A stretch of 24,229 nt of DNA from positions 1-24,229 of the IMG/VR virus record IMGVR_UViG_3300017783_000206; one strand, written 5' to 3'. The notes beneath the pieces were generated by a model. It searched no databases, had not been told where the DNA came from, and saw only the letters and a list, made by a program, of their open reading frames with translations. The stretch comes from a virus. Of this stretch, positions 2,133-22,700 are shown piece by piece. The translations under genes and the position numbers were made by a program. How positions within the stretch are numbered: the first letter of the stretch is position 1; each line of letters begins with the position of its first letter.

Positions 2133-4310
2133 ATGGTAGGCAAATATAATGGTCCTGATTTTGGGTTCGTAAAAAATGCTAAGTCAAGGGCAGACAAATT
2201 CAGGAACTTCGATGAATCGGCCTCCTACGCCAGGAAGTCCAGCATAAAAAAACTTCCGCTACAACCGGATCCCAACGTGTTGCACAAGTTCGCATCTTAC
2301 AACACCATATTCACTCTGTCTGCGTTGAGCCGCCAGGAGATCCGTAATCCCAAGCAGTTCTTCAACAGTGCACCACACGACATCATAGCAAGGAGTGGTG
2401 GCACAGGAGACGCCAACAGTAACACAGCACCACCCGGTGCACGTGAGAGGTTCACGGAAGACACCAAAGAAACCATAAGGAAGAGTGCCGCGTTGCGAGA
2501 CGCCCTCAACAGGAGCACCACAGAATTCTACAAGAACAACGATCTCTATTTCAAGAACGTCGAAATGACGTCAATACCGGCACTGAACGACAAGAGGCGT
2601 CTGACCAACGTGACCAACATCATGATGGAGTTGGTTGAACCGTCGGGACTGACGCTGTTGGAGAAAGTGAAGGCGGCCGCGGCCAACAACGGTTTCCTGG
2701 ATCATCTTGACGCACCCTACATGCTCACAATTGAGTTCAAGGGCTTCGATGAACACGGCAAGGATATCAAAGAGAACACAGATTTCATAAAGAGGGTCAT
2801 ACCTATCAAACTGATCACCATGGACATAGACGTTAACCAGGGAGGGTCATACTACAACATCAAGGCCATACCCTACGACCAATTCGCCCTTACCGACCAA
2901 TACATGTATCCGAGGACCAGCGGTAGCCTTAGATCAACCAACAGGTCGTTCAAGGACGCCGTGAAAAACTTGCAAGACATATTGGATGAGCAGAATAGAG
3001 ACGAGCAAAGCAAAGCACTCAACCAATTCCCAGACAGGTATGACATATCGATTAGTGAGGACCTTAATCCCGAAGCACAACTATCATATGAACTACTAGG
3101 CCAGGCAGGAATGACACAGGAAAATGTTAACTTTGCGGCAGGAGAGGAGGAGTTCACAATGGAGTTCATAAAATTCAATTCATCGGTACACATTCCTAAA
3201 CTGTTGGAAAATCTCATGAAGACCCATCCGGACTACGGCGCAAAGAGTTTCGACGAGTGGAGTAAGGCAGTAAGCACACCAGGATCAACAACTTTTGATC
3301 CAAACGGCGCTCTGTCCACCTACTTCAAGTATTTCAGGATACGTACAGCGATCGAACCAACGGCAGATTTTGATGAGATACGGCAGACCAACTCCAAGAT
3401 CATTAAGATCGTGGTGGAACCGTTCTATGTCAGTGCCTACAACCTGGCAACAGCGGGCATACACCAAGACAAGAATTATCAAGGATACGTGGCCAAGGCC
3501 TACAACTACATATTCACTGGCGATAACCTTGACATACAGGATCTCAACATCAACTACAAAGTTGCCTACTACCAATCTAGGTTGAAGGACCTGGAGGCCA
3601 ACGAGAGCAGGACATTCTCACAGAGCAACAAGGACGAGACAAATGAAACGAACACACCAACCAACAGGGAAAAATACAGGAGTGACCAGTATCTGCCCCT
3701 CAAGAGTGAGGTATCCTTGCACAAAACTTCGCCGAGCAACAGGTTAGGCAAGGCGGACTCCAGGATAGACCAGTTCTTCGACGCTATAACCAATCCACTT
3801 GCGGACATGGTGGTGGTGAACATGACGATACTGGGTGATCCCGCATGGCTGGGACAGAGCCAGTTCATTCCAGCGACACCGGTGAACTCCAACGGCAGTT
3901 CCCAGGACAACAACATTGAATTCTTCAGGGGAGAGGCAAAGGACAACGTATGGAACCCCAACCTTAAATGTTTCAACTACGACGTGGCCAAGCCAATAAC
4001 CAACCTCACCTTCAAGGTGCCACAGGACTTCGATGACAAGACCGGTGTTTATGAGATGTCATCGGCACAACAGGCGGTGTTCTCGGGCCTTTATCAGGTA
4101 ACACAGGTGCAACACAGTTTCACTGACGGTCAGTTCACACAGAATTTAACAATGGTGAGGTTTAACAACCAGGATAGCAAAGTCACCAACACCAGCAATC
4201 AAAAAATTACAACGAAAAATGGTGTGGTAACTAATGTGAAAAATCCAATGCAGGCATCACGTGAGATGGAAAACATTTGGAAAATCAGAGAAGATGATGG
4301 GATGGCATAA
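2133..4310 (+). CDS. Baseplate hub protein, gp27-like by position and C-terminal motif (725 aa)
   Basis: This is a large protein between gp53 and gp5, as in marine T4-like phages. Near the C-terminus residues 652-676 read GLYQVTQVQH...GQFTQNLTMVR, the 'Y-V-x2-V-x-H ... G-x-F/Y-T-x-x-L-x-x-R' pattern that ends hub domains of the gp27, Mu gp44 and gpD type. This suggests a trimeric hub that joins the tail tube to the gp5 spike. The N-terminal 60 residues are basic and polar. A segment at about 142-206 (FKNVEMTSIPALNDKRR, then a MELVEPSG motif and MLTIEFKGFD) is a block I recognise from marine myovirus structural proteins. Length is nearly twice that of T4 gp27 (391 aa). The start follows the gp53 stop by 3 bp, with TAGGAA upstream. 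The hub role is inferred; the structural role is more certain. Confidence 0.65.
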   Translation: MVGKYNGPDFGFVKNAKSRADKFRNFDESASYARKSSIKKLPLQPDPNVLHKFASYNTIFTLSALSRQEIRNPKQFFNSAPHDIIARSGGTGDANSNTAPPGARERFTEDTKETIRKSAALRDALNRSTTEFYKNNDLYFKNVEMTSIPALNDKRRLTNVTNIMMELVEPSGLTLLEKVKAAAANNGFLDHLDAPYMLTIEFKGFDEHGKDIKENTDFIKRVIPIKLITMDIDVNQGGSYYNIKAIPYDQFALTDQYMYPRTSGSLRSTNRSFKDAVKNLQDILDEQNRDEQSKALNQFPDRYDISISEDLNPEAQLSYELLGQAGMTQENVNFAAGEEEFTMEFIKFNSSVHIPKLLENLMKTHPDYGAKSFDEWSKAVSTPGSTTFDPNGALSTYFKYFRIRTAIEPTADFDEIRQTNSKIIKIVVEPFYVSAYNLATAGIHQDKNYQGYVAKAYNYIFTGDNLDIQDLNINYKVAYYQSRLKDLEANESRTFSQSNKDETNETNTPTNREKYRSDQYLPLKSEVSLHKTSPSNRLGKADSRIDQFFDAITNPLADMVVVNMTILGDPAWLGQSQFIPATPVNSNGSSQDNNIEFFRGEAKDNVWNPNLKCFNYDVAKPITNLTFKVPQDFDDKTGVYEMSSAQQAVFSGLYQVTQVQHSFTDGQFTQNLTMVRFNNQDSKVTNTSNQKITTKNGVVTNVKNPMQASREMENIWKIREDDGMA

Positions 4311-6772
4311 TGGTAGGAAGAGATTATTATAAAGGACACGCATCTAACCCCAGAGCACCGGGCAATGACACCTCTTGGTCGGGAGAGAGTGCAGGTCCAT
4401 ACATAGGTGTGGTCAAGAACAACGTTGATCCATTGAGGATGGGAAGACTACAGGTCAACATTCCCAACCTCAGCAAGACCAATGACCCCATCAGTGGCAA
4501 CTTGGTCACATGTGAATACCTTTCACCTTTCTATGGTGCCAAGGACGCTAGACACAGCATACCGGGTTCCACTGACTACAAGGACAGCCAACACAGTTAT
4601 GGCTTCTGGGCGGTGCCACCTGACCTAGACACAAGGGTGTTGGTGATATTCGCGGAAGGCAAGATGGACCAGGCGTTCTGGATAGGTTGCGTGCCGGAGC
4701 CCATGACCAACCAGATGACACCAGGCATATCATCAAGCACACTGACCCACGATGCCTTGGACGGCACCTTCGAGGGTGCGGACGCAGGATTCCAACAAGA
4801 CAAGAAATCAAAATACGGAACCACTAATGTTCCAGCCGGAGAAGTCAATAGGACAAAGACAGATGCCACACCACAACAGATCGCTAATGACAGACGGCCC
4901 ATACACCCGTTCGCAGAAACACTATTGAAACAGGGTCTTAGTGCGGACGACATCAGGGGTAACACCTCCAGTTCAGCACGTAGGGAGACACCGAGCCAGG
5001 TGTTTGGTATCAGCACGCCAGGCAGGAAAGACACGACCACCACAAAAGAGAACGTGGGAACAAAAGATTCAGGGGCAAAGGACTACGTCACGAGAAAGAC
5101 AGGACACACGTTCGTCATGGACGACGGTGCTGAGGACGGCACAAACCAACTCACAAGATTACGTACGGCGTCAGGACATCAACTGCTGATGCACGACACA
5201 GAGGGTGTGGTTTACATAGCCAACGGTTCTGGTAACGCCTACATAGAGATGCAGAAGAACGGCAGGATCGATGTGTATTCTGGAGTGGGAGGAATAAACT
5301 TGAGGACGGAGGGTGACTTCAACCTACACTCGGACTCCAACATCAACATGCACGCCAATGGTCAGATAAGGATGAGTTCTGCCAAAGAGATGATACAGAG
5401 TGCAGATGTCATATTTACAACGGGTCAAAAAGGAATATTCAACAGTTCACAGGCCGGGTCCGTGAGAACATTTGCCAGAGACGGGATAAGTTCAGATACC
5501 AAAGGTAGTCAGTTGCATGGAGCCAGGGGAGGCAGTATACACCTGGCGGCGTCTCCTAGAGGACGTACTGGCGGCCAGATACATTTCAATTCGACTTCCC
5601 CAAGTGACAAGTGGGGGCCATCATGGCTGACCCAGGAGAAGGTCGGAATGCAACTGCGTGAAGAGGGTGACGTAGAATTAGCACATAAAGGCGTCAAGCC
5701 ATTGAAGGAATTCACCAAGAAGACCAAGACAACAGTGCATAGATTGGTCACACACGAACCCATGTTCAGGGCCAGCGTGATAGACAGCGACGGGATCATA
5801 CCCGTGGACGCCGACGACAAGAAACAGTGGAGCAGGCTTGCCAACACGCCAGGCACTGCCGAGTATGTGAACAACAGGAACAGATTGAGTGAGAACAGTG
5901 CCATACGTGACGCCCAGTACCAAGCAGATGCGTTGCAATGGGTTAAACAGAAGATAGGTGACAGCACCAACGCCACCAAGGCCAAACAGTTGTTGACAGA
6001 GTTCGGAACCAAATACAATGCAATATATGGCATCTCGGAAAAGATAAATTTACCTTTCGATATCAAGGACAGCATTTCAGAGAAGTTCAAGGGATTAGAT
6101 TTCAATTCTCCTCTCAAGGACCTTACCAGCAACCTTACATCACAGGTGGTGGACTCTTTCACGGGCAAGAGCAAGGAACTGTTCAAGGACAACGTGTTCG
6201 TCAACAGTGCGGGAGAACTGTTCACTCTTGGCAGTGACACGATATCAGGTGTGACCGGTAACATAGACCTGCTGAACAGCAGTCTTAATTCTGTGCAGGG
6301 TCTCACAAAGAACCTGTCAGCGGGCAACATTCCTGCAACCATATCTAATCTACAGAGCATAAGCCAGACCTACACCAGTGTGGTAGGTGGCCAGATAGTG
6401 GGCATGAACCAGATCAAGAGCCTGGCCAGCAAGGCAGGACTTTTCGACGCCAGGGACGCCGCGAGGGGCGGTCAGACCTTCCTGGAGAACGTGGGCGGAA
6501 ACTTGACAGAGAAGATAGGAAACATAGGTGGAGCAGTCAAAGGGTTCTTCTCAGGTTTCAAATTCAGCGATCAGAGATTGAAGGAAGATATCAAATTAGT
6601 TGGCAAGTCGCTTGCAGGCATCAACATATATTCGTTTAAATACAAACACACCAATGGAACATACGAGGGCGTGATGGCACAGGAGGTTCCGTGGGCGAGA
6701 ACAATAACACACACAGGATTCTATGCTGTGGACTACAGCAAAGTTGACGTGGAATTTAGGAGATTGCATTAA
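4310..6772 (+). CDS. 5: gp5-like central spike/hub protein with C-terminal S74-type domain (820 aa)
   Basis: This is the likely membrane-puncturing spike under the hub. Domain order: an OB-fold-like part at residues about 30-130 (YIGVVKNNVDPLRMGRLQV ... RVLVIFAEG...AFWIG); a polar linker at 131-275 with TSSSARRE...FGISTPG; a VgrG/gp5-type beta-helix at about 286-360 (LLMHDTEGVVYIANGSGN, IEMQKNG, NLHSDSNINMHANGQIRMSS); a coiled or low-complexity stretch at 440-745; and an S74 intramolecular-chaperone-like domain from about 750 to the end. No T4-lysozyme-type catalytic domain is seen where T4 gp5 (575 aa) carries one. The ATG overlaps the hub gene stop (TAATG). Assignment to gp5 rests on the OB-fold plus spike repeats directly after the hub gene. 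Confidence 0.85.
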   Translation: MVGRDYYKGHASNPRAPGNDTSWSGESAGPYIGVVKNNVDPLRMGRLQVNIPNLSKTNDPISGNLVTCEYLSPFYGAKDARHSIPGSTDYKDSQHSYGFWAVPPDLDTRVLVIFAEGKMDQAFWIGCVPEPMTNQMTPGISSSTLTHDALDGTFEGADAGFQQDKKSKYGTTNVPAGEVNRTKTDATPQQIANDRRPIHPFAETLLKQGLSADDIRGNTSSSARRETPSQVFGISTPGRKDTTTTKENVGTKDSGAKDYVTRKTGHTFVMDDGAEDGTNQLTRLRTASGHQLLMHDTEGVVYIANGSGNAYIEMQKNGRIDVYSGVGGINLRTEGDFNLHSDSNINMHANGQIRMSSAKEMIQSADVIFTTGQKGIFNSSQAGSVRTFARDGISSDTKGSQLHGARGGSIHLAASPRGRTGGQIHFNSTSPSDKWGPSWLTQEKVGMQLREEGDVELAHKGVKPLKEFTKKTKTTVHRLVTHEPMFRASVIDSDGIIPVDADDKKQWSRLANTPGTAEYVNNRNRLSENSAIRDAQYQADALQWVKQKIGDSTNATKAKQLLTEFGTKYNAIYGISEKINLPFDIKDSISEKFKGLDFNSPLKDLTSNLTSQVVDSFTGKSKELFKDNVFVNSAGELFTLGSDTISGVTGNIDLLNSSLNSVQGLTKNLSAGNIPATISNLQSISQTYTSVVGGQIVGMNQIKSLASKAGLFDARDAARGGQTFLENVGGNLTEKIGNIGGAVKGFFSGFKFSDQRLKEDIKLVGKSLAGINIYSFKYKHTNGTYEGVMAQEVPWARTITHTGFYAVDYSKVDVEFRRLH
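6566..6769 (+). other. S74 (endosialidase-type) intramolecular chaperone-like domain in gp5
   Basis: Codons 753-820 of the gp5-like gene begin SDQRLKEDI and continue with an INIYSFKYK strand, GTYEGVMAQEV and a final YAVDYSKV. This is the order of the S74 family: S-D-x-R-L-K-x-x-I, Y-x-F-x-Y, G-V-x-A-Q-E-V, V-D-Y. Ser753 and Lys758 have the Ser/Lys spacing (5 residues) of the proposed self-cleavage dyad of endosialidase NF. In other phages such domains help trimeric beta-helices fold and are then cut off before the Ser. Whether this short copy (about 68 aa) cleaves is unknown. Confidence 0.82.
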
Positions 6773-7185
6773 TGGCATACGGAGATTCAGGATCAGGAGA
6801 CCTATCAAACAAGTCAGTGACCTTCAAGGGTTTCAGTTCACGTGCGGACAAGCGTAACTTCAAACTGTACGACTTCGAAGTGGCCAAGCAGGACCTGATC
6901 AACAGGTTATCAGTGCGTAAGGGTGAGCGGGTTGAGAACCCTGAGTTCGGCACCATAATATATGATGCCATATTCGAACCGTTTACAGAACAACTCAAAG
7001 ACGCCATAGTGGAGGACATCACTGCAAATTTGAACGCAGACCCTCGTATTTCTACACAAGAGATCCTAGTAACAGAAGCGGACAAGGGAATAGCCATACA
7101 GGCCACTATAACCTATGTTCCACTGAATATAACAGAGAAACTGAGATTCAACTTCGATGAGAATTCGTTGTTACGCCTATCTTAA
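6772..7185 (+). CDS. 25: Baseplate wedge subunit gp25 (137 aa)
   Basis: A wedge protein of the gp25/GpW-like lysozyme-related family, a part shared by contractile phage tails and type VI secretion (TssE). In T4 it binds the gp6 dimer core and helps start sheath assembly. Evidence: length close to T4 gp25 (132 aa); an early helical segment (DFEVAKQDLINRLSVRKGER, about 34-53), then NPEFGTIIYDAIFEP (56-70) with the family's conserved G-E-R...NPEFG...FEP pattern; and a C-terminal beta-strand pair. The ATG overlaps the gp5 stop (TAATG), with TAGGAG upstream. It ends the first gene unit; a short spacer with a late promoter follows. Confidence 0.9.
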   Translation: MAYGDSGSGDLSNKSVTFKGFSSRADKRNFKLYDFEVAKQDLINRLSVRKGERVENPEFGTIIYDAIFEPFTEQLKDAIVEDITANLNADPRISTQEILVTEADKGIAIQATITYVPLNITEKLRFNFDENSLLRLS

Positions 7186-7231: not shown

Positions 7232-10200
7232 CCACTACAGATAGACAAAACAGATTATTAGTCGCGGAAGATTGGAGAAAGATCTACCAGGCTTTCCAAC
7301 AGGCGGATTTCAAATCATACGACTTCGAGACCTTGAGAAGGACCATGGTAGCGTATCTGCAAGAGAACTATCCAGATGACTTCAATGATTTCGTTGAGAG
7401 TTCTGAGTATGTGGCGCTAATAGACCTTATTGCCTATGTGGCACAGGCACTTTCTTTCAGAGTAGACCTTAACGCAAGGGAAAACTTCTTAGAAACTGCC
7501 GAAAGAAGAAACTCGGTTTTGAGATTGGCAAGGCTTATCAACTATAATGCAAAGAGAAATCTTCCAGCAACAGGATTATTAAAAGTAGATTCTATCTCTA
7601 CAACACAGGACGTGCAGGACAGCACAGGAACAAACCTTGCAAACTCAAACGTCATCTGGAATGATTCGGCAAACTCAAACTACAGGGAGCAGTTCACAGC
7701 AATACTGAACGCGGCCAACCAGACGGGACAACTGTTTGGCAATCCCAGGGAGTCAGGCAAGATAGGTGGCATCGACACAGAAGTCTACACACTAAGTTCC
7801 AACCAGTTGGATCTACCCATATTCAAATTTCAGAAGTCAGTGGGAGGTACAGCGAGAGCTTTTGAAATAGTTCCTAGTACAACAACAGATTCAGAAGCCA
7901 TATATGAATCATCACCGGTGCCAGGATCCGGATTGACTTACACTTACAGGTCAGATGGATCTGGAGACAGTTCAAACAACACAGGTTTCTTCTTCATGTT
8001 CAAACAGGGCACAATGCAGAATCAAGAGTTCACTGTGGACACAGCGATTACGAACTATGTGAAAAGTTTTGAGACATCCAACATCAACAATACCGACGTA
8101 TGGTTGTACAAGTTAGATCAGTTTGGACAGTTGTCTGAAGCATGGTCAAAAGTTCCATCGTTATCAGGAAACAATGCGATTTATAATTCTTTATCTAAGG
8201 AAGAGAGAAACACATATAATGTTGTTACAAAAAATAATGATTCAGTCGACCTAGTGTTCGGAGATGGTAATTTTTCCAACATACCTTTAGGCAACTTCAG
8301 GACCTACTACAGGGTCAGCGACAATGCAAAGTTTGCCATACAGCCTGCTGACATGCAGAACGTACAGTTGACGGTACCATACACGGACGCCAACGGTGCA
8401 CAGCAGTCATTGACAATGAGCGTGAGTCTTAAATCAAGTGTGTACAATTCTAGTGCAACTGAATCCAATGATTCAATAAAAGAGAAAGCCGCACAGGTAT
8501 ACTACTCACAGAACAGGATGATCACGGCAGAGGACTACCAGGTTGTGCCTTTGAGTGCTTCACAGGAAATCGTAAAAGTGAGATCGGTCAACAGGTCCGC
8601 GTCAGGAATCAGCAGGGCCAAAGAGATACTGGATCCAACGGGGGCATACTCGAATGTAAGCGTGTTTGCCGAGGATGGAATCATATACAGGGAGGAAAGT
8701 GTACAGCAGTTCACGTTCACTTTCAACAACAGGAGTGACATACAATCCACAATAGACACATCAGTAGAAGCCAAGTTAAAGGAAGCATACGCCAGACAGT
8801 TCTACTACTTGAAGTACGGCACGAAAGACGCCAGCACACTTTCAGCAACATGGAATTCAACAACAACTTCCACCAACACCAACACGGGGTATTTTACTTC
8901 AGGTGGTGCATTGGTGATAGGAGATTCTGCAACCTCAAACATGAAATTCGCGAAGCCGGGTGCTTTGATCAAGTTCACATCTCCGGACACCAGGAAGTTC
9001 TTGAATGGTACACTGGTCACGTCAACCACAGACAATGCGGAAGACAGGGCATGGGCCAAGATAGGTGATGTGGTGCTTGATGGAGCCAACGGCGGAGTAG
9101 GAAACCTAGAGTCGGGTGTTGGTCCAGTCACACTTAATAACATAGTGCCAGACGGTTCTGTAATCAATGCAATAATTCCAAATCTGACCACATCGTTCAG
9201 TGCAACGCTCGAAGCAGATATGATAGACAGGATAGAGGCCTATGAGGAATTTGGTTTACGATATGACACAGATTCAGAAACATGGAAGGTGATCACTTCT
9301 ACGAACCTAAGCACAAGTTCGGTATTCGGTCTTGGTAACACAGGTTCAACCACAGGAACAAACGCGGATGCCAGTTGGTGGTTCAAATTTACCAACGACG
9401 GAAACACCTACACGGTGCAATACAGGAAACTGGATTACATTTTCGAATCAGAGTCACAGAACAAGTTCCACTATGACGTGGAAGAAAAAATTTACGACTA
9501 CACAACAGGTAGGAGTGTCAAAGACACGGTAAAAATTCTTAAAACAAACAGTATAGTTTCGACGGGAAACAGTGTTGGATACCCGATCACATGGCAAGTG
9601 GTCGATGTTGTGACCGAGATAGACGGTTACCAGGACAACAGGAAAGTTAAGGTTGGTTTCTTTGATGCAGACGATGACGGTGTTGTGGACAATCCTGAAC
9701 TGTTTGACATATACGTTGAACCAACACTTTCGGAATCCACTAAATTTGTTTTCTTTGAGAAGTACACATCATATGACGCAATTGAAAGATTCAGACCATA
9801 CGCATCAACCAACTTCGTTGTTGCTGAAAAAGAAACAGACATAAATTTAAACACGTCGACTTATACAGACGGGCAATTATTTTACTTCTATGACAGCGCC
9901 GAGGACGTGATCAAGAAGTACAGTTCTACAACCAATACTTTGACCACGACAACGGACTACACAGCAAGGAAAGGCAGAAGTTCAATTGATTTCCAGTACA
10001 AACACCATGCCGGGCAAGAAACCAGGATAGATCCCAGCGTGTCTAACATTGTTGACGTGTACCTATTGGAGAGGACCTATGATAACCTGTTCAGGATCTG
10101 GTTACAGGAAGGCGGATCGAAACCAACTGTGTCCACAGCAGACCAGTTGAGAATCAACTACTCAGGCACACTAAATCCATTGAAATCTTTATCTGATCAA

Positions 10201-10710
10201 ATCATTTACCATCCAGTAAAATACAAAATTTTGTTTGGTTCAAATGCAGATGAACAACTACAGGCAACTTTCAAGGTTGTAAAAAATCCAAAGACCAATG
10301 TGTCAGACGCAGTGATCAAGACCAGAGTGATCGCCGCGATAAACGAATTCTTCGCACTGGACAACTGGGATTTTGGAGACGCTTTTTATTTTACAGAATT
10401 GGCCGCTTACATACACAATGAACTAGCACCAGACTTGTTGACAGCGGTCATTGTGCCCAACCAGTCAGGACAGGGTTTTGGGTCCTTGTTCCAAATTGAC
10501 TCAGCGGCAGACGAGATTTTCATCAGTGGGGCCACCGTTGATGATGTGTCAATCATAACAGCACTGGGAGCCAACCAACTGGCGGCCTCCGGCACTGTGG
10601 TCACATCAACATCAACTGCCACGACCAACACCACGACAGGATCAGCAGTGTCAGGCTCTACTACAACAGGTTCCGGTTCAAGCACCGGCAGTAGTGGGTC
10701 AGGATACTAA
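7228..10710 (+). CDS. 6: Baseplate wedge subunit gp6, enlarged (1160 aa)
   Basis: Main wedge protein; in T4 gp6 dimers form the continuous ring of the inner baseplate (gpJ-like family). The N-terminus is typical: YLQENYPDDFNDFVESS (about 43-59), then LIAYVAQALSFRVDLNAREN (68-87), AERRNSVLRLAR and YNAKRNLPA. A middle block has VFGDGNFSNIPLGNFRTYYRV (about 343-363), then YYSQNRMITAEDYQV (about 424-438). The conserved C-terminal part (about 1000-1090) has KTRVIAAINEFF, NWDFGDAFYFTELAAYI and LAPDLLTAVIVP. T4 gp6 is 660 aa; the excess lies mainly between about 500 and 1000 and includes an EF-hand-like loop at 813-824. The last 40 residues are an almost pure Ser/Thr/Gly tail. The start codon is the first ATG after the late promoter and lies inside a palindrome. 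Identity is confident; the role of the extra middle region is not known. Confidence 0.9.
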   Translation: MATTDRQNRLLVAEDWRKIYQAFQQADFKSYDFETLRRTMVAYLQENYPDDFNDFVESSEYVALIDLIAYVAQALSFRVDLNARENFLETAERRNSVLRLARLINYNAKRNLPATGLLKVDSISTTQDVQDSTGTNLANSNVIWNDSANSNYREQFTAILNAANQTGQLFGNPRESGKIGGIDTEVYTLSSNQLDLPIFKFQKSVGGTARAFEIVPSTTTDSEAIYESSPVPGSGLTYTYRSDGSGDSSNNTGFFFMFKQGTMQNQEFTVDTAITNYVKSFETSNINNTDVWLYKLDQFGQLSEAWSKVPSLSGNNAIYNSLSKEERNTYNVVTKNNDSVDLVFGDGNFSNIPLGNFRTYYRVSDNAKFAIQPADMQNVQLTVPYTDANGAQQSLTMSVSLKSSVYNSSATESNDSIKEKAAQVYYSQNRMITAEDYQVVPLSASQEIVKVRSVNRSASGISRAKEILDPTGAYSNVSVFAEDGIIYREESVQQFTFTFNNRSDIQSTIDTSVEAKLKEAYARQFYYLKYGTKDASTLSATWNSTTTSTNTNTGYFTSGGALVIGDSATSNMKFAKPGALIKFTSPDTRKFLNGTLVTSTTDNAEDRAWAKIGDVVLDGANGGVGNLESGVGPVTLNNIVPDGSVINAIIPNLTTSFSATLEADMIDRIEAYEEFGLRYDTDSETWKVITSTNLSTSSVFGLGNTGSTTGTNADASWWFKFTNDGNTYTVQYRKLDYIFESESQNKFHYDVEEKIYDYTTGRSVKDTVKILKTNSIVSTGNSVGYPITWQVVDVVTEIDGYQDNRKVKVGFFDADDDGVVDNPELFDIYVEPTLSESTKFVFFEKYTSYDAIERFRPYASTNFVVAEKETDINLNTSTYTDGQLFYFYDSAEDVIKKYSSTTNTLTTTTDYTARKGRSSIDFQYKHHAGQETRIDPSVSNIVDVYLLERTYDNLFRIWLQEGGSKPTVSTADQLRINYSGTLNPLKSLSDQIIYHPVKYKILFGSNADEQLQATFKVVKNPKTNVSDAVIKTRVIAAINEFFALDNWDFGDAFYFTELAAYIHNELAPDLLTAVIVPNQSGQGFGSLFQIDSAADEIFISGATVDDVSIITALGANQLAASGTVVTSTSTATTNTTTGSAVSGSTTTGSGSSTGSSGSGY
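9664..9699 (+). other. EF-hand-like calcium-binding loop in gp6
   Basis: Codons 813-824 encode DADDDGVVDNPE, with Asp at loop positions 1, 3, 5 and 9, Gly at 6, a hydrophobic residue at 8 and Glu at 12. This is the full ligand pattern of an EF-hand/dockerin calcium loop. Flanking helices are not obvious, so it may be an isolated calcium loop stabilising the inserted region. Confidence 0.6.
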
Positions 10711-13700
10711 TGGCAGACAATCCCACCAACGCATTAACTAATAACGAAGTTGTCAAACAGGGCAACAACGAGTACAGGCGTACAGTACAACACCTACCTG
10801 CTTTCTACAGGACAGACGCCAATCAACGTTTCCTGGCCAGCACGATGGATCCGTTAGTACAAAAAGGGTCACTGGAGAGACTAGACGGTTACATAGGAAG
10901 ACAGGATGCCTACACAAGACAAATCAGTGACAGATATATCACTGCCACAAGTAGAGATAGGTTCGCATATCAGTTAGAGCCTACTGTGACATACACAGAC
11001 AGAGACACAACATCGGTCAATCCCGAAGATCAAGTCAAGTTCACCGGAACGTACGATGATTACATAAACCAGATCAAGTACTTGGGCGGAAAGATTAACA
11101 ACCATGACAGATTGAACAAAGAGACTGTGTACTCATGGAACCCAGCCATAGACTACGACAAATTGATCAACTACAGAGAGTACTACTGGATACCAGAAGG
11201 GCCTGGAGCCATAGAGATAGATTCAGTTGGACCCAGTGCGGTCATCGAGTATTCGGTTGAGAATTTGGCACAAGGGGCCTACAACTTTACACACAGGGAG
11301 AACGAGAACAATCCCATACTGACGCTTTACAGGGGAAACACTTATAAGTTCGATGTGAACGCCAAAGGACATCCTTTCTGGATAATGACCGAGCCATACA
11401 AGAGCAAGGTATCAGAGGACGGCTCTACATCAACGATATTCGATACGGGAGTCACCAACAATGGAGCAGATTACGGAACTGTTACATTCACAGTTCCCAC
11501 TACAGGTGCACCAGACACTTTATACTATCAGTGCGGAAACCATGATGCCATGTACGGCATATTACAGATACGAGATGTTGTAAGCACTACTTCTATCAAC
11601 GTAGAAGATGATATCATAGGTGTTAAAAACTATAGCCTAAGGACTTTAGATCTTTCAAATGGCATGAAAATTAAATTCACCAACTCGTTGGTACCATCGG
11701 CTTATCAGGATAAAGAATATTACGTAGAAGGCGTTGGTGATTCTATCACACTTACTGATGTTGAAGACCTAATAACTCCAGGCAGTTACGCTACAGAGTC
11801 TACAATACTATACGACCAAGTAGGATATGATTCAAGACCATATGCGAAAGCGTACTACACTCCAGACAACAAAGATTACATCACAATAAAAAGGGATTCT
11901 CAGGATCAGAACGCATGGTCCAGATATAACAGATGGTTCCACAGATCCATAATAGAGGAAACTGCGAGGATAGGCGGCCACACTCCTGTGCTTAATGAAG
12001 ACGACAGGGCAAAGAGGCCTATCATAGAATTTGACTCTGGTTTAGCACTTTACAATCATGGAACTGTTGCCAAAAAATCAGTGACACTTTATGACACAGT
12101 GACCACAGACGCCTTCAGTGATGTTGTCAAGCAGACTGGATACATCATTGACGGACTAGCACTGGCTAACGGAATGAGGGTAGTGTTCGCGGCGGACACG
12201 GATCCCATAGTAAAGAACAAGATTTATGATGTGAATTTCGTCACAGCGGGAGATTCCACGCAGGTCATCAACTTAACAGAGGCATCCGATGCCACGCCAA
12301 CCAACAATGATTCTATTTTCATAGAGTTTGGAACAGCAAACCAGGGAAAAACTTTTTACTACAACGATACTACTGAAACTTTTGAAGAAGCACAACAGAA
12401 AACAGGCGTGAACCAACAGCCGTTGTTCGGTATGTGGGATAACAATCACCTCTCATTCGATGATGCTACGACATATCCCAATTCAACCTTCGCTGGAGCA
12501 AAGGTTTTTGCTTTCGCAACGTCTGACACGGCAACCACTGACACGGTGCTTGGCATCAAGGTAAAATACAACACCATCAACAACGTGGGAGACATCGTAT
12601 TCGATTCAGATCACACATCAGGAACCTTCACTTATAAGAGCGGAACATCCACAATCACAAAGAACTTGGCCGAGGGTCACCTGCACTACACGACAGGCAG
12701 GTCAACTCACAATTCAAGGAGTGCCTGGATTAAAAGGACGACGGAAAGCAAACAGCGGGCGATCAGGACTTTCATAGTCGACGCAACTGAAAAACAGTTG
12801 TTCCCCATCGACTTCTACAAGAATTCAGCGGACCTCACCGATCTTGAACTATCGGTATCTGTCAACGGTTCTCGTAAGACACTGACGACCGATTACACAC
12901 TAGAAACAGGAACAAAAAACAAATACGTAAAATTTAATACTGCCCTGGAAGTTGACGATCAGATCCGGATAGCAGGACATAGCAGTGCTGAAAAGATCGC
13001 TGACAAGGGCATATACGAGATCCCGGAAAATTTAGCGACAAACAGTCTCAACCAACAGTTGGGCACATTTACATTTGGTCAGATACTGGCTCATGTCAGG
13101 GACATACTTGACAAGAATCAAGATGTCACAGGAGCGATACCAGGAGTTTCAAATCTACGAGACAAGCCAGATGCGAGATTGAAGGGCGGTAGCATACACC
13201 AACACGAAGGACCGTTGCTTCCGGCCATTTTTGGTTTGGCGGATCAGAATTCCAACATAATTTCATCAATAGATTATGTCAGCCAGGAATATGAGAAATG
13301 GTACAACGCATTCTTAACACATGCAACAGGTACGGCATACGAGGGAGTTGCCGCTGACAGGATTGACGAGATAATCGCGGCCATAACACCAGGTAGAAAT
13401 AGTGGTTTCCCGTTCTACTACGAAGACATGGTAGGTTGGGGAGAAAACCTTTCGACCAGATCATACACGGTGATGGGATCATCACAGACAGACTATGCAC
13501 TGGACTCACAACACGACATAACGACTTTGAGCAATAGGGCAGTCTATGTGTACTTGAATGATGTGCAGTTGTTGTTGGGAACAGATTACACTTTCAGCAC
13601 AACAGACGACAGTGTCAGCATTAGCAAGGCCCTGGCCGAAGGTGATAAGATCGTCATCAGAGATTACACAGACACCACCGGCAGTTACATGCCACCGTCG

Positions 13701-16700
13701 CCGACCAAACTGGGAATGTATCCCAAGTTCACACCGGAGACATTCACAGATACCACGTATCTCACAGACACAGCGGTGATCCGTAAGCACGACGGTTCCA
13801 TCATCAAGGCGTATGGAGATGAACGTGATGATTTAATATTAGAGTTAGAAAAAAGGATCTACAACAACATCAAAGTGATCTACGATGCCACTTTGGTAGA
13901 CATACACGATGTGTTGCCAAGTGCTTTCACATCAACGGAGTACACACTACAAGAAGTGGACGGGGTGATGGGACCAGACTTCTATCAGTGGGCAGGCCGT
14001 AACAATGTGCAGTACATCAACAACACCGCGTTCACGGAAGGATCACCTTTCACGTACAACTATGCTAGGTCAAAAGGCAGACTGGTTGATGAGAACCTAC
14101 CAGGACACTGGAGAGGCATATACAAATATTTCTACGACACGGACGCTCCACATGTCAGGCCATGGGAGATGCTGGGTCATTCGGAGAAGCCTAGCACGTG
14201 GGACGCGACCTACGGAACCGCTCCATACACATCAGGCAATGATGTATTATGGAACGCTGTTGCGACACAGACGGGAAGATACGGGAAATCTCTGATCAGG
14301 GACTACCTACCTGTTGACGCATCAGGCAATCTTTTAGATCCATTGGAGGCGGGACTAGTTGACAACTTTGATATACCGGGAAGACAGAACGGATGGAAGT
14401 TTGGCGATCAAGCACCAGCGGAGACGGCATGGAGGAGATCCAGTGCTTACCCATTCACGGTCATTAAGGCATTGGCACTTACTAAACCCGCTAAGTTCTT
14501 TTCTAATCTTTTTGATCCGTCTAGATTGACGACGAACGTCGCAGGCAACCAGATCAACACAGCGACTGGTATAAGGAACACACTTGCAACAGCGAAATAT
14601 CATCTAGAAACGGAAACAAATACAGCAACAGGTGTGACGACAAGATACCAGACGGCAGGATACCAACCATTAGTGGTCAATTACCTGATATCGAGGAACA
14701 TGGACAGTAAAACTTTCTATTATGATAAGATGAAGAACTTATCTGTACAACTATCCTACAAGTTGGGCGGATTCACCGACAAAGACAACATAAAGATCTT
14801 AACAGACAGTGTGTCACCAGGATCTAAGTCAGGATCAAAATTCATGCCGGATGAAAACTACAAGATACTTTTCAGGACATCCAATCCTGTAGAGAGTTTC
14901 CAATATTCTGGTGTGCTGATAGAGAAGAACACAGATATCAGTCAGGATGGTTCCACTATACTGGGCGGATACAAGTTGTTGGGTTACAGCACTACCAAAC
15001 CTTATTTCAACTTTAACTACCCTGTGAAGACTGCTACCAACAAGTCAGTGTCTGTGCCAGGATCGCAGGAGGTAGCTCAATACAACAACTACCAGGAGAT
15101 CACACAGACCATACCATATGGTCACGTGTTTGAAACCATACAGGATGTTGCTGATTTCTTGTTTGGCTATGGACAATGGCTAGAATCACAAGGATTCCGA
15201 TTCAACAAGTTCTCGAACGAACTCAAAGAAACACTGAACTGGTCAAATGCTGTACGAGAATTTTTATTCTGGACCACACAGGAGTGGTCACCAGGATCAG
15301 CGATAACCGTTTCTCCGGCCGCGGATGGTTTCGAACTAGACACCGACAACAGCATCGTTGGGAAACTGAGGAACCTGGCAGGTGACTATTCACTACTAGA
15401 CTCGGGCGGTAGGAAGATAGATGTCAGTGAGATATCTACCAAAAGAATAGGTAAGACTTTTGAACTGGGGATCAAATCCGATACGGTTGGACTGTACAAC
15501 ATAGCACTCAACACCGTGCAGAAGGAACACGTATTGTTGTTTGACAACAGCACGGTGTTCGCAGACATAATATACGACCCGTTCACAGGATTCAGGCAAC
15601 AGAGGCTCAAACTGGTCGGCTGGAAGACGGCGGGTTGGAATGGTGACTACTACGCACCGGGATTCGTGTTCGATGCCGCACAGGTCACATACTGGACGGC
15701 CAACACAGACTACAGGATAGGCGACAGTGTTGAATACCAAGGCAAGTTCTACGTGGCAAAAACCAATCATAACTCGGGTGCTACTTTTGAAAAAACCAAC
15801 TGGACACTCAAAGATGAGAAACCAGCACCGCAGTTGATACCCAACTTCGAGTACAAGATAGCACAGTTCAACGACTTCTATGAGTTAGAGACCAACAACT
15901 TCGATGAATCGCAACAGCAGTTGGCACAGAGGCTCACAGGGTACCAATCAAGGGACTACCTGGAGAACCTTTTCGTCAATGACGTGTCGCAGTACAAGTT
16001 CTACCAAGGTTACATCAGGGAGAAGGGCACACAGAACGCCATAGACAAGATATTGAAGGCCAAGTACGAGGGAGAGGACATCACGTTGGACCTATATCCG
16101 GAATGGATGATACGTACAGGTAACTTCGGTAACACGGACTCCATAGAGAACATACAGATAACATTGAAAGATAACGAGATCACAGCAGATCCACAGAGCA
16201 TTGAATTGTTGGACACATCCAATGACACGGTGCAATATACAAGATCGGATGCGATAGTCAAAGACAACTTCTACTACAAGCCGGTTGAGTACACAGCGTC
16301 GACCACATTCAAGAGATTGGACTACACAAAAGGTGGGGTCAGCAGGGACACAGGACAGGTGTTCAAGACCGCAGGATATCCTCAACTGCAACAGGTACAA
16401 CACACTGCGTTCAACATAGACGAGATCCGCAACTTGGACATGAATGTCATATCAAGCAATGATCTGATATGGGTGGCCAACAAGAGTAATGGTGATTGGG
16501 ACGTGTTCAGGATCACCAGTGCTGGCATAAAGATAGCGGATCTACAGTTGATAAACGATGCCTCACAGTTGGAGATCACATTCACTGGTTCTCACAATTT
16601 GACGGCGGGGTCAACTACCACACAGGCGGACTACTTTGGTATATCAAACAGTGAAGAAGCAACGCTGAACGGCGTGTACCAGGTCAGTTCTACACCAGAC

Positions 16701-19700
16701 CACAAGACGGTGATCATCGATTATGATGGCAATGTGGGATTTATTCCGGCACTGGAAGACGGCTCAACAGCAGACAGTTATGGAAACATCTACAAGTTCG
16801 TGTCTGTGAGATTGGCATCAATGGATAATGTAAATGACTTGATAGATTTTGAAAATTACACAGACAAGGATGACGCTATAGAACAACTAGGAGACAAGGT
16901 GTTCGCAGACGCTGACAGTTCAGGACTGTGGCGTGTGTACGAGAAACAGGATCCGTACACGTCAGCGATAGTGTTATCCCCAGACGCCGGCACAGCAGAA
17001 CAGGAGTTTGGACACAGGATAGTGGCACGTAATGACGGAAGGACGGTGATAGCATCCGCTCCAGGCAAGGGACAAGGTGAGGTGCACTTCCTGTTCAGGC
17101 CTTCCGCGGAAGCAGGGACAACTTTGCAAACACAATCCACAGTGACAATGACAGAGAACAATGACAACACCAGCAGGCTTGGCGAATCATTATCGATCAG
17201 TACCGATGAGAACTTTGTGGTTGCTGGAGCACCATACACAAACGCTATAGATGATGATGGCAGTACAAGACAAATAGACTCAGGATTAATCAAGGTTTAC
17301 ATTTGGGATCCAAGCACGTTCAAGTATGGAATACTTGACACAATTACAGCACCAACAGATGGTTCTACATTTAACGAGAATGCGAACTTTGGTTGGGCAC
17401 ACAAAATTTCAGAACCAGGCATAACTTCCACAAGGACAACAGCAGACAAATACATGTTCGTGTCCGCACCAGGCCACGACAACGACAGGGGTCGGGTGTA
17501 CATGTACACGTGGGGAGTGGGCTCAGACGGATCCACGTACGACACTTGGACACAGGACTACACCATAGAGGCACCGGCCGGTGGTTCGGCACAGAGATTC
17601 GGACACAGGATACAGGCCAACGACAACGGTGACATACTTGCTGTGAGTTCCGTGGCACCAGGCAACGCGGGCAAGGTGGAGATATTCATCAAGACGTCAC
17701 AGAGCAATGATGGTAGCACACAAAATTCATTCGCACTGGCACAGACCATAACAGGTGTGGCGTCAGATGGTTCCAGTATTAATACAGCGTTTGGTGAATC
17801 TATAACAATGAGTAAAGATGGTACAGCACTGATCATCAGTGCACCTGGAGTCGATGGCACATTACATCCAGACGCAGGAGCAGTGTACTACTACAAATGG
17901 AACGCAGATGATTCGACCAACACTTACACACTACAACAGACTATAAGTGCTCCTGAATCGAGTACCAACATGAAATTTGGCACAAGCCTAGACATCAATG
18001 ACGCCGGCACAAGAGTGATAATCGGTGCTGAAAATTTTGCCAGCTCGAGGGAAATGAAATTTGACACAGGAGAGACAACTTTTGATCTACAGGATACCAC
18101 AATAGTTGACAGCAACACAGGATCAGGCGGAGCGTTCACGGCAACCATGTACAATACTAAATTTGTTGTGGATGACAGACTGGTTACAAACAATGTCACA
18201 GCAGACGATGACTTTGGAAGAGGTGTCTGCATGATTGACAATTCGGTCTTTGTTGGCGCACCAAAAGACGATGGCAACACAACATCGGACGGTAGCACCA
18301 AAATAGTGAACGATGGTACTGTTGCATGTTACGACCTTGCAGTGAATGGTCAATACGCATGGAAAAATCTAGTTACTGAGACAGCACTGATGGACACAGA
18401 TAAATTAGGAAAAGTTTTTGAATTTAGCCAATCAACAAAACAGATTAGAGATTATTATGATCTTTATGATCCTGTGAAAGGAAGGATATTAGGCATTGCT
18501 GATAGGGAAATAAACATCAAAACTGCATGGGATCCTGCAACTTATAATGTAGGAGACAATGCGAACACAAAGACACCATGGGCTGAGACACACATAGGTG
18601 AAGTATGGTGGAATCTGTCCACGGTCAAATGGTTATGGTACGAGCAGGACACACAGGAATACAAGCACAATCATTGGGGACAGACATTCCCTGGTTCCAG
18701 CATAGATGTGTACGAATGGGTGGAATCTCGATTATTGCCAAGCGAATGGAACAGGAGAGTCGAAGGCACGGCACGGCAAATTATATCAGGCACGGCTCTG
18801 TACGGAGATGATTCGCAGTACACAGTGACACAGAAGTACGATTCGAGACTAGACCAGTTTGTCAACTACTATTACTTCTGGGTAAAAGGAAAGACAACAC
18901 TGCCAGAAGAGCAGGTCAAGAATGATAGACATCAGCACATGCACAGGAAGAACACAGTGGCATTTATTGCCAACCTGATCGCAAATCCTAGGGCATTTGA
19001 TTACAAGTACTATTCTGTCACCGACACTAACAAATTACTATTGAATAACATCTCAAATTTAACCAATGACGATGTAGTGCTTAACATAGATATAAGAGCA
19101 AACACGTTCGAGGGAGATTCACACAGTGTATGGAAGTTGGTCAGGGAAGGCGATGCCGACTACAGGCCAGGTCATCAGATAGAGGCACGTTGGTGGGACT
19201 CTCTGGTAGGAAAAAATACTGCGGGCGACGTGGTACCAGATCTAAACCTACCAGTAAACGAGAGATACGGTAACAACGTAAGGCCGAGACAGAGCTGGTA
19301 TGTTGATAGGTATAATGCACTCAAAGAGATCATAGACTACGCAAACAGTGTGTTGAAAAAACATCAGTTGGTGGGCCAGGTCAATTTAACAAATTTAGAC
19401 TCCAAGGAACCAGAACCCACAGGACAGAGTGGCGAATGGGACGCAACAGTTGATACATACGTAGAACTGACTTATCTCAACACAGCAGATCTTTCAGGCA
19501 CTGTGAACTACTTGGTCAAAGCAGACGAGACAGCAAACAACCGTTGGGCGATATATCTATGGGACGGCACAGAATTCACGAGGACAAAAGTACAGACTTA
19601 TAACACTAGTGCATATTGGAGTTACACTGATTGGTACAAGACAGACGGAGACATGGCGCATAATGACAACACCAAGATCGACAAGCAGGTCACGTTCCAA

Positions 19701-22700
19701 TACGAACTTGATACACTGGACCTTGTCATAGGCAAACACGTGAAAGTAACGAGTGCAGACACAGGCGGGTGGAAACTGTTCATGAAGACTGCCACAGGAT
19801 GGGAAAATGTTGGAACAGAAAACGGCACCATCAGGTTGAGCACTAAACTTTACGACTACAGTCAAGATGCATCTGGCTTCGCAGGCGAGGACACGTTCGA
19901 TGAAAACTTCTTTGACCAGGAACCAAGCATAGAGACCAGGAAAGTGTTGACTGCATTGAGAGATGATCTATTCATAAATGATCTCGCAGGTGAATACAAC
20001 ACCTTGTTCTTTACAGGATTGAGAAAGGTGCTTTCTGAACAGACGTATGTGGATTGGATGTTCAAAACTTCATTCATAAATGTTAAAAATTCAGTTAGAG
20101 AACTGGACCAAAGAAAAACTTACACCACTGGCACAGACAGTTGGATAGAAAGTTACATCAACGAAGTCAAACCTTTCCACACAAAATTAAGGGAATACAC
20201 ACTAGGCTATGACAAGACGGAGACTCAAGACGGCATATACACAGACTTTGACAATCCAACTTTTTATGACGCAAATACTGGAAAAATAAGACCGCTAAAC
20301 GTAAGTCTAGACACTGAGAAGTTGACTGAATACCCTTGGCAGATGTGGAACGATTACCATAAGAAATATGTTTCATCAATAACAATTATCAATGGCGGAT
20401 CTGGATACACCAAGGCACCTACAGTAACCATAGTTGGTGGTACTGTGGCATCAACAGGTCCATTCCAGATACAAGCAACCAGCAATAGAGGTTCGACGTC
20501 AGGCAGTTACGGTTACTACTATCCTTTATTCAGCAGTGAGGCCCAGGCAAAAATATGGGACAGTCAAAACGGAGGTTCAGGAACCACCAACACGTACGGC
20601 TTCGACGGCTTCTCTGGATTGTTTTATGGTCCAAGCACAACGATAACTCCTACCAGCACCAGATCAGGTGCGTACAAAATGTATGAGACTCCAAGCACGA
20701 CCGCGGCCACGGCAACGGCGACAGTGCAGGATGGTAAGGTCACCAAAATTACACTTACAGGCAAAGGGGCAAATTACACAGCCACTCCAATGGTTGTCAT
20801 CACAGGTGGTGCTGATGACGGGTCAACGCCGTCAGACACAGCAAGAGCATATGCTAATTTGGCCAACGACCTGGTAAGAGACTTTGACACGACAATAAAA
20901 TTCGATAGGGTGTCCAGCACATCGAGAGTGGTTGATTGGGCGGCCAACACAAACTATGCTTACAATGACCTGTTAAGGTACAACAACAAACTTTACAAAG
21001 TTACCAATGCATTCACTTCATCGACAGACTTCGACGACAACGTCGGAAGTGTTTACAAGGTGTACGGCGATGAGACAGGACTTACAGCCGCTGACAGGAC
21101 TAAAGGTTTCTACACACCAGGTGCTGGAATGCCAGGCAATGAACTGGATCAAGTGATGACTGGTGTGGACTACGGCGGAACAATGGTTACTGGATTATTG
21201 TTCTCACAAGAAGCAGGTTGGGACAAAGCGGGTTGGTATGATTTCCCATGGGACAACTATGGTGGTTCAAGAGTCGTGGCGTTTAGGGCAGACGGAGTAG
21301 GACAAGATTATGACTTCGATGTTGCACCGGCCACAACAGAAGTTTATCAAGTGTACATCACGCAGGATGATAGCACAAGGAAAAAACTCCCTGATGTTAT
21401 CAGAGGTGATGGATCAACAGTGAGATTCGCTATCAGCGAGATAGCAGAAGCGAATGCTCTAGTAGAGTTCATTCCATTTGATGATGACGGAGTTTTGACA
21501 CCAACTGATGACAGGACATTGGATTCGATAGTCAAAGGTGGCCTTTTCACATCAGCACTGGGACACGCACCAAGTGATATCGTGTTGGAGGGAGACGAGT
21601 TCGTTTCACCGGACACTAGTTACGCACCTGAAGAAACTGTTCCTGGTCAGTTGTTTGACACATTGGACATAAAAGTTTACACTTCACCAGAGTCTGGTGT
21701 ACCATTCATCAGTGAGATGAGTCACAGAGGTAACGGAAGCACAACGACATACAGCATAGGTGACTATCCTGGCACACTTGGATCAGTGACTGTGACAGTG
21801 GATGGTGTGGTTAAGAAAGGCAGTGCATTAGATTCAACAGTGTCTGATTATACAATCAATGTTGCAAACAAAACAATAACATTTGACACGGCACCTGCAA
21901 ATCACACACAGATCTCAACTAAAGTGTTTGCCATCTCCGGAGAAAATTACAGAGTGTTGAACTCATTCACAGGGGACGGCAGTACTACTACATTCCTTAC
22001 TTCAACCAGAGGTGAGTTCAATCTAGATTCAACATCTTCTGACATCTATGTCACAGTTGACGGTGTGCCAATAACCGCATACTCGACTACCACTTCTGCA
22101 AACACAATCACAGTCGTGTTCGACTCGGCCCCGGAAGCAAGTTCATACGTACAGATAGCCGGTTTCAACAAGTCATCAACATCTACACGAAGTTATGCAA
22201 GTGTCAGAAACCAATCAATAACATATGACGGATCAACAAACAGATACACCTTAACATATCCACCTGGTGCAATAGGACCTTTCTCTGGTCTCACAACAGT
22301 AGAAGTCAATGGCAGGGTGCTACGTGGACCAGACAACACTTATTACTTAGGAGATGGAAGCACTTACACATATGGTGTCGTTTCGGGATTGGAAGATGAC
22401 TCAACAGTGGATCCTGCTAAAACTATTTCAAGTGCAAGTCAAGTACAGGTCTTCGTAAATGGTGTCAAGAAAGATTTAAGCACACACTACACAGTAGATG
22501 TTGGAAACCAAAATGTTGAATTTGTTACTGCACACGTTCCGAGTACCACGGATGTGATATGTATCTCAACCTTGGTTGATCATCAGTATTTCAATGAGGG
22601 GACTGATATAATATTAGTACCAAGTGCAATTACATCACCTTACAGTTTGAGTGCCAGCGATGTGTTATCAGTCACTACATTCAACAACGCTCTAGGCATG

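What the first reader, a model, noticed from the sequence alone, without database searches (positions are those of the whole stretch)
6566..6769. gp5-like spike ends in an S74 intramolecular chaperone-like domain
S74 domains are best known from endosialidases and tail fibres, where they help trimeric beta-helices fold and then cut themselves off. Here one follows the beta-helix of the central spike, with Ser753/Lys758 in dyad spacing. It suggests that the spike trimer is matured by self-cleavage, a different route from T4 gp5, which is cut next to its lysozyme domain.
Basis: partly seen in the sequence, partly recalled or inferred. Interest (0 to 1): 0.58.

Follow-up and report, generated by a model that had tools for sequence, protein, structure and literature searches.

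The report
Phage spike with swappable self-cutting cap
The cell-piercing spike of a group of marine viruses of bacteria ends in a small domain of a self-cutting family, and sister viruses that lack the domain stop at the very residue where the cut would fall, which suggests that the domain is a removable cap over the spike's real end.

Summary
In detail: the 820-aa gp5-like hub/spike (4310-6772, +) ends in a Peptidase_S74 domain at residues 753-820 (Pfam E 6e-8) with Ser753/Lys758 in SDxxxK spacing. The interpretation needs changing. The domain does not follow the beta-helix: about 270 residues lie between a THEP motif (481-484), near where jumbo-phage relatives end, and Ser753. It is a short form, exactly 68 aa in 124 of 124 S74-bearing hub contigs, without the C-terminal coiled-coil helix that drives trimerisation and cleavage in MyRF and that fibre S74s mostly keep. 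The residue before Ser is Phe, Trp or Leu (109, 11, 4 of 124); in 11 fibre controls it is Thr (10) or Val (1). In 14 related hubs without S74 the protein stops at the equivalent aromatic residue (12 Phe, 2 Trp). S74+ and S74- alleles interchange: at least 7 changes on a 108-row tree; one pair is 99.8% identical upstream. The same short form ends many podovirus-type DNA-ejection proteins, after a hydrophobic segment. Best reading: a self-removing cap on a cationic, aromatic C-terminal tail, cut between Phe752 and Ser753. Cleavage itself is not shown.

The parts
4310..6772 (+). gp5-like hub/spike gene, 820 aa
   Evidence: ORF; PF04717 and PHROG 13211
4400..4699 (+). OB domain, about residues 31-130
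   Evidence: PF04717 E 1.1e-6, best stretch 97-128; PHROG 13211 31-352
5093..5599 (+). probable beta-helix region, about residues 262-430
   Evidence: DUF2345 only E 0.07 at 326-385, 8 of 52 hubs at E<=0.01; boundaries inferred
5750..5761 (+). THEP motif, residues 481-484; jumbo-phage relatives Paride and SCTP-2 end shortly after FEP/THEP
5762..6565 (+). C-terminal extension, residues 485-752; helices predicted at 501-594
   Evidence: pLDDT 66-80 for most of 491-590, low elsewhere
6512..6565 (+). cationic aromatic tail, residues 735-752, ending FFSGFKF
6566..6769 (+). short Peptidase_S74 domain, residues 753-820
   Evidence: PF13884 E 6.4e-8
6566..6568 (+). Ser753 codon; predicted cut just before it
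   Evidence: motif; family knowledge
6581..6583 (+). Lys758 codon, dyad partner
   Evidence: motif, invariant 80 of 80
6758..6763 (+). AGGAGA inside codons 817-818, probable ribosome binding site of gp25 (ATG 6772)
6772..7185 (+). gp25-like baseplate wedge gene
   Evidence: PF04965 E 2.6e-7

Best explanation
The spike protein ends, after its OB and beta-helix parts, in a ~270-aa extension whose last ~18 residues form a cationic, aromatic, acid-poor tail. A short S74 domain caps this tail. After chain assembly the Ser753-Lys758 dyad cuts the chain between Phe752 and Ser753, the 7-kDa cap leaves, and the mature spike ends in ...FFSGFKF. The tail is the working end, probably a membrane-seeking tip. 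Sister phages reach the same end directly with a stop codon. Shown here: the domain, its dyad, its short form, the tail pattern, and the exchange of S74+ and S74- alleles. Inferred: the cut, its timing, and the membrane role of the tail.
For: Pfam S74 match. S, D, R, L, K invariant in 80 of 80 distinct hub domains; S, D, K invariant across 63 hub and 16 ejection-protein domains. S74-less hubs end in F or W in 14 of 14 contigs, and Ser is preceded by F, W or L in 124 of 124, against 5.4% F+W in residues 431-700. L031/L062 differ only by a 251 versus 68 bp cassette in nearly identical DNA. At least 4 and 7 state changes on two trees. Tail composition. In MyRF, S587A and K592A abolish the cut between P586 and S587 (passages of PMC8326128).
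Against: No proteomic or biochemical evidence of a cut. The C-terminal coiled coil that MyRF needs for trimerisation and cleavage is absent. A boundary at Ser is also what mere gain or loss of a whole domain would leave. Some S74-less alleles share downstream sequence and may have one origin. The membrane role rests on composition alone; amphipathicity of S74+ tails is only mildly above background.
Confidence: 0.5

Rival explanations
1. The short S74 domain is not cut. It stays as a small C-terminal domain of the spike tip, a cap or binding module in place of a PAAR tip, and Ser and Lys are kept for structure.
For: Missing coiled coil; strong conservation of the whole domain, not only the dyad; no PAAR_motif in 12 related contigs, which may be incomplete.
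Against: Sister spikes lack it without any replacement and end at the same aromatic residue; dyad residues invariant even across ejection proteins.
Confidence: 0.28
2. One reading: a classical S74 chaperone that registers the beta-helix trimer and then cuts itself off.
For: Family membership; spikes of this kind are trimers; characterised S74 domains act so.
Against: About 270 residues separate it from the beta-helix; Ser follows an aromatic tail, not beta-helix sequence with Thr as in 10 of 11 fibre controls; no coiled-coil helix; S74-less sisters with nearly identical beta-helix.
Confidence: 0.16
3. A passenger module spread by recombination, with no role in the spike beyond carrying the gp25 ribosome binding site.
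For: S74 divergence is nearly uncorrelated with body divergence (rho 0.05, against 0.54 between two body segments); codons 817-818 hold AGGAG at gp25 spacing.
Against: Strong conservation across the domain, dyad included; length fixed at 68 in 124 of 124 contigs.
Confidence: 0.06

Closest known systems
Peptidase_S74 / ICA domains of K1F endosialidase, T5 pb1 fibre, GA-1 neck appendage, MyRF, Bdellovibrio MAT fibres
   Same: SDxxxK dyad (K1F has SNGERK), GVxAQEV core; profile match to 7dc3 MyRF (E 0.0034) and 3gud GA-1 (E 0.015)
   Different: 68 aa after and including Ser against 98-191 in 11 fibre controls, 133 in T5 and 154 in K1F; no C-terminal coiled coil; preceded by an aromatic tail instead of beta-helix
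Short S74 ends of podovirus-type DNA-ejection or structural proteins (Sulfitobacter pCB2047-C, Pseudomonas PAE2, Rhizobium RHph_Y1_10, Microcystis Mae-JY35)
   Same: Same short length (63-67 in 21 of 23 printed), Ser after a hydrophobic segment in most, C-terminal position; invariant S, D, K
   Different: Different parent protein; the segment before Ser is Gly/Ala-rich and uncharged, not cationic-aromatic
T4 gp5 with gp5.4 tip
   Same: OB domain and hub position in the baseplate cluster
   Different: No lysozyme domain found here; T4 tip is the PAAR protein gp5.4 (PMC4576200, passages) while this spike has a long extension and S74. The site of T4 gp5 cleavage is recalled, not checked
Hubs of jumbo phages Paride/PA5oct and SCTP-2
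   Same: 34-35% identity over residues 6-414 (Paride) and 29-349 (SCTP-2)
   Different: Proteins of 477 and 476 aa that end shortly after FEP/THEP, with neither extension nor S74

Membership tests
Peptidase_S74 (PF13884) | Profile match above the curated cut-off | tested here: met
   26.9 and 33.2 bits against 22
Peptidase_S74 (PF13884) | Ser-Lys dyad, SDxxxK spacing | tested here: met
   Ser753/Lys758; invariant in 80 of 80 distinct hub domains
Peptidase_S74 (PF13884) | Counterparts of K1F N912 and G956 | tested here: met
   Asp754 and, by profile alignment to MyRF, Gly787; both invariant; requirement from PMC3742443 passages
Characterised full-length S74/ICA domains | C-terminal helix forming a trimeric coiled coil | tested here: not met
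   Chain ends 68 aa after Ser; no C-terminal helix in the model; controls 98-191 aa
Characterised full-length S74/ICA domains | Position directly behind a triple beta-helix | tested here: not met
   Extension 485-752 in between, partly helical; tail composition
Characterised full-length S74/ICA domains | Fold like solved S74 structures | tested here: inconclusive
   No solved S74 retrieved by Foldseek/VIA; predicted viral ICA proteins retrieved at E 1e-6
Characterised full-length S74/ICA domains | Autoproteolysis before Ser | not testable with these tools
   Needs expression or mass spectrometry
gp5/VgrG-type central spike | OB domain and hub position | tested here: met
gp5/VgrG-type central spike | Triple-stranded beta-helix | tested here: inconclusive
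   DUF2345 E 0.07 in the window, 8 of 52 hubs at E<=0.01; model not confident
T4 gp5 (tail lysozyme) | Internal lysozyme domain | tested here: not met
   No lysozyme family for the window hub at E<=1 or for 52 hubs at E<=0.01

The most novel reading that the evidence does not exclude
The short S74 domain is a general self-removing cap on membrane-seeking C-terminal tails of the proteins that enter the host envelope first, contractile-tail spikes and podovirus-type ejection proteins alike. It keeps a sticky end masked during assembly and unmasks it by one autocatalytic cut, without the coiled-coil trimer of classical S74 domains.
Probability: 0.28. Interest if true: 0.77.

Novelty: new variant of a known kind. 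Interest (0 to 1): 0.55.

Why it matters
If the cap is cut, it is a second way, besides PAAR tips, of finishing the point of a contractile injection spike, and natural S74+ and S74- sister alleles make it directly testable. It would separate two uses of S74: trimer folding in fibres, and capping of tails in injection proteins. It also shows gp5-like spikes changing their ends by cassette exchange.

Tried and rejected
Beta-helix chaperone as the main role: not kept as best reading, because of the intervening extension, the missing helix and the S74-less sister spikes.

Full-length AlphaFold2 model: mean pLDDT 45.9; S74 and beta-helix not confident. Foldseek and VIA on PDB with the S74 model: no solved S74 structure among the rows shown; top rows are kinase fragments and are disregarded.

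Conservation of the last residues (VEFRRL) as evidence of protein function: weakened, because codons 817-818 are AGG (100 of 100) and AGA/AGG (97 of 100) and form AGGAG at gp25 spacing (14 bases before ATG in 88 of 100). Arg codons in hub bodies are AGG 48% and AGA 36%, so part of the bias is background.

NCBIfam gave nothing; single-sequence searches of PDB gave nothing. Paper searches listed no title or abstract describing S74 on a gp5-like spike or a short S74 on ejection proteins (searches found no paper); only open-licence papers are held, and I read passages of nine papers only. PMC7824862 (passages) mentions S74 autopeptidase domains in jumbo phages in general terms.

Biases: in scans 11 and 47 one of six peptide patterns each lay in S74, so the share of S74+ hubs is inflated. 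Seven loci of the second scan repeat contigs of the first; they were removed but may still hold a few near-copies. Background windows are not independent. The trees are quick ones, and several long branches meet.

Full report
What is there. The ORF at 4310-6772 (+) encodes 820 residues. It stands in a baseplate cluster with gp53, gp25 and gp6 homologues. It carries the phage-baseplate OB domain (PF04717 E 1.1e-6) and matches the PHROG 'baseplate hub subunit and tail lysozyme' at E 1e-36. Its last 68 residues match Peptidase_S74 at E 6.4e-8; Ser753 and Lys758 have the family's spacing. The window record holds this one S74 match. Of 18 related contigs searched whole, the 13 with an S74-bearing hub have one match each and the 5 others (four with S74-less hubs, and L048) have none; all may be incomplete.

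Relatives. Two scans of viral contigs gave 147 hub loci. With the window, and after removing seven repeats of the same contig, there are 141: 124 end in S74, 14 lack it, one (L048) has another C-terminal module, two are cut by the contig end. The share of S74+ is inflated because scan patterns included S74 peptides. In all 124 the domain is exactly 68 aa. Over 80 distinct domains S753, D754, R756, L757 and K758 never vary.

The end before the domain. In the 124 contigs the residue before Ser is Phe (109), Trp (11) or Leu (4); the 14 S74-less hubs end in Phe (12) or Trp (2). Reduced to distinct 20-mers this is 65 F, 6 W, 3 L of 74 and 7 F, 1 W of 8. F plus W make up 5.4% of residues 431-700. 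Examples of S74-less ends are KIFKF, FFGKFKF, SFFRF, GKMFGF and GGKFW. In the six loci read in detail the stop codon is followed by a short spacer and the gp25 start. The 18 residues before Ser are more hydrophobic and aromatic than the preceding region and nearly free of acid residues: mean charge +1.85 against +0.22, 3.74 aromatics against 1.26, 59 of 66 without D or E against 17%. S74-less tails have mean charge +3.25. The hubs of Paride and SCTP-2 have neither this tail nor S74 and end shortly after an FEP or THEP motif; THEP is at residues 481-484 here.

Natural allele exchange. L031 (with S74) and L062 (without) are 99.8% identical over 5641 bp before and 96.7% over 3891 bp after a cassette of 251 versus 68 bp. 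The replaced stretch includes the tail, and both versions end it in FF..FKF. L008/L035 and L034/L048 show exchange at the same place at lower identity. On trees of the hub body the S74 state changes at least 4 times (61 rows) and at least 7 times (108 rows). S74 divergence hardly follows body divergence: rho 0.05 with segment 440-590 and 0.13 with 200-350, the two segments 0.54. Several S74-less ends share their downstream spacer, so these alleles may have one origin spread by recombination.

Not a classical fibre S74. Twelve fibre or tailspike S74 loci were fetched as controls; 11 showed the motif. Their Ser is preceded by Thr in 10 and Val in 1 and followed by 98-191 residues, counted with Ser, mostly ending in a helical ARLxALE-like stretch. 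T5 has 133 and K1F 154. In MyRF the C-terminal triple coiled coil is the main force of trimerisation, cleavage needs the trimer, and L692A or R695A in the helix blocks it (passages of PMC8326128). PMC3742443 (passages) reports a like need of its zipper, and that counterparts of K1F N912 and G956 are needed. The window domain has counterparts of Ser, Lys, the residue after Ser and the Gly of GVMAQEV (profile alignment) but stops before the coiled coil. Its model (residues 733-820, S74 part pLDDT mostly 78-89) shows strands and no C-terminal helix. Solved S74 folds were not retrieved with it; predicted viral ICA proteins were.

The same short form elsewhere. A search with the hub's end found 19 phage records, mostly podovirus-type structural or ejection proteins. 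Six such proteins were scanned: all six match Peptidase_S74 (five above the cut-off, one at 17 bits), and all six match PHROGs named DNA ejection or virion structural protein. Two scans of viral contigs gave 38 loci. The script examined 31 of these; 23 distinct ones showed the motif and two missed the pattern. In 21 of the 23 the chain ends 63-67 residues after Ser (counted with Ser); L187 and L195 run 136 and 77. In most, Ser follows a hydrophobic Gly-rich segment (mean hydrophobicity 0.53, charge 0; 17 segments); L171, L173, L176 and L179 have milder Ala-rich ones. Across 63 hub and 16 ejection domains Ser, Asp and Lys are invariant.

Reading. The domain looks like a removable cap on a C-terminal tail that matters. 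The cut before Ser753 is inferred from the family, the invariant dyad and S74-less sisters that end exactly there. The weakest point is the missing coiled coil: either the spike trimer itself brings the three dyads together, or the short form does not cut. That the tail is membrane-seeking rests on composition and on the parallel with ejection proteins. No PAAR_motif match was found in 12 related contigs, which are fragments, so the tip of this spike is otherwise unassigned; in T4 it is gp5.4 (PMC4576200, passages).

Noticed in passing
L048:4711-9273: In this relative the hub's S74 is replaced by a ~250-aa module with a different C-terminus, and a subtilisin-like protease gene (PF00082 E 2.5e-33, 7744-9273) lies between hub and gp25.
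   Followed up: partly
L083:2905-5502: The hub of Agrobacterium phage Atu_ph07 carries a trypsin-like peptidase domain at its C-terminus (PF13365 E 6e-17): another spike with a protease domain at its end.
   Followed up: no
6758-6763: The gp25 ribosome binding site (AGGAGA) lies inside the last codons of S74; codon 817 is AGG in 100 of 100 hubs.
   Followed up: yes
L086:5176-8733: In this 1185-aa 'internal virion protein D' a short S74 (from residue 277) is internal, followed by a transglycosylase domain; a cut there would split the protein.
   Followed up: no
10710-23597: A single 4295-aa ORF follows the gp6-like gene; its role was not studied.
   Followed up: no
L133:2720-3370: About 650 extra bases between hub and gp25, against under 100 in 123 of 127 hub loci examined.
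   Followed up: no
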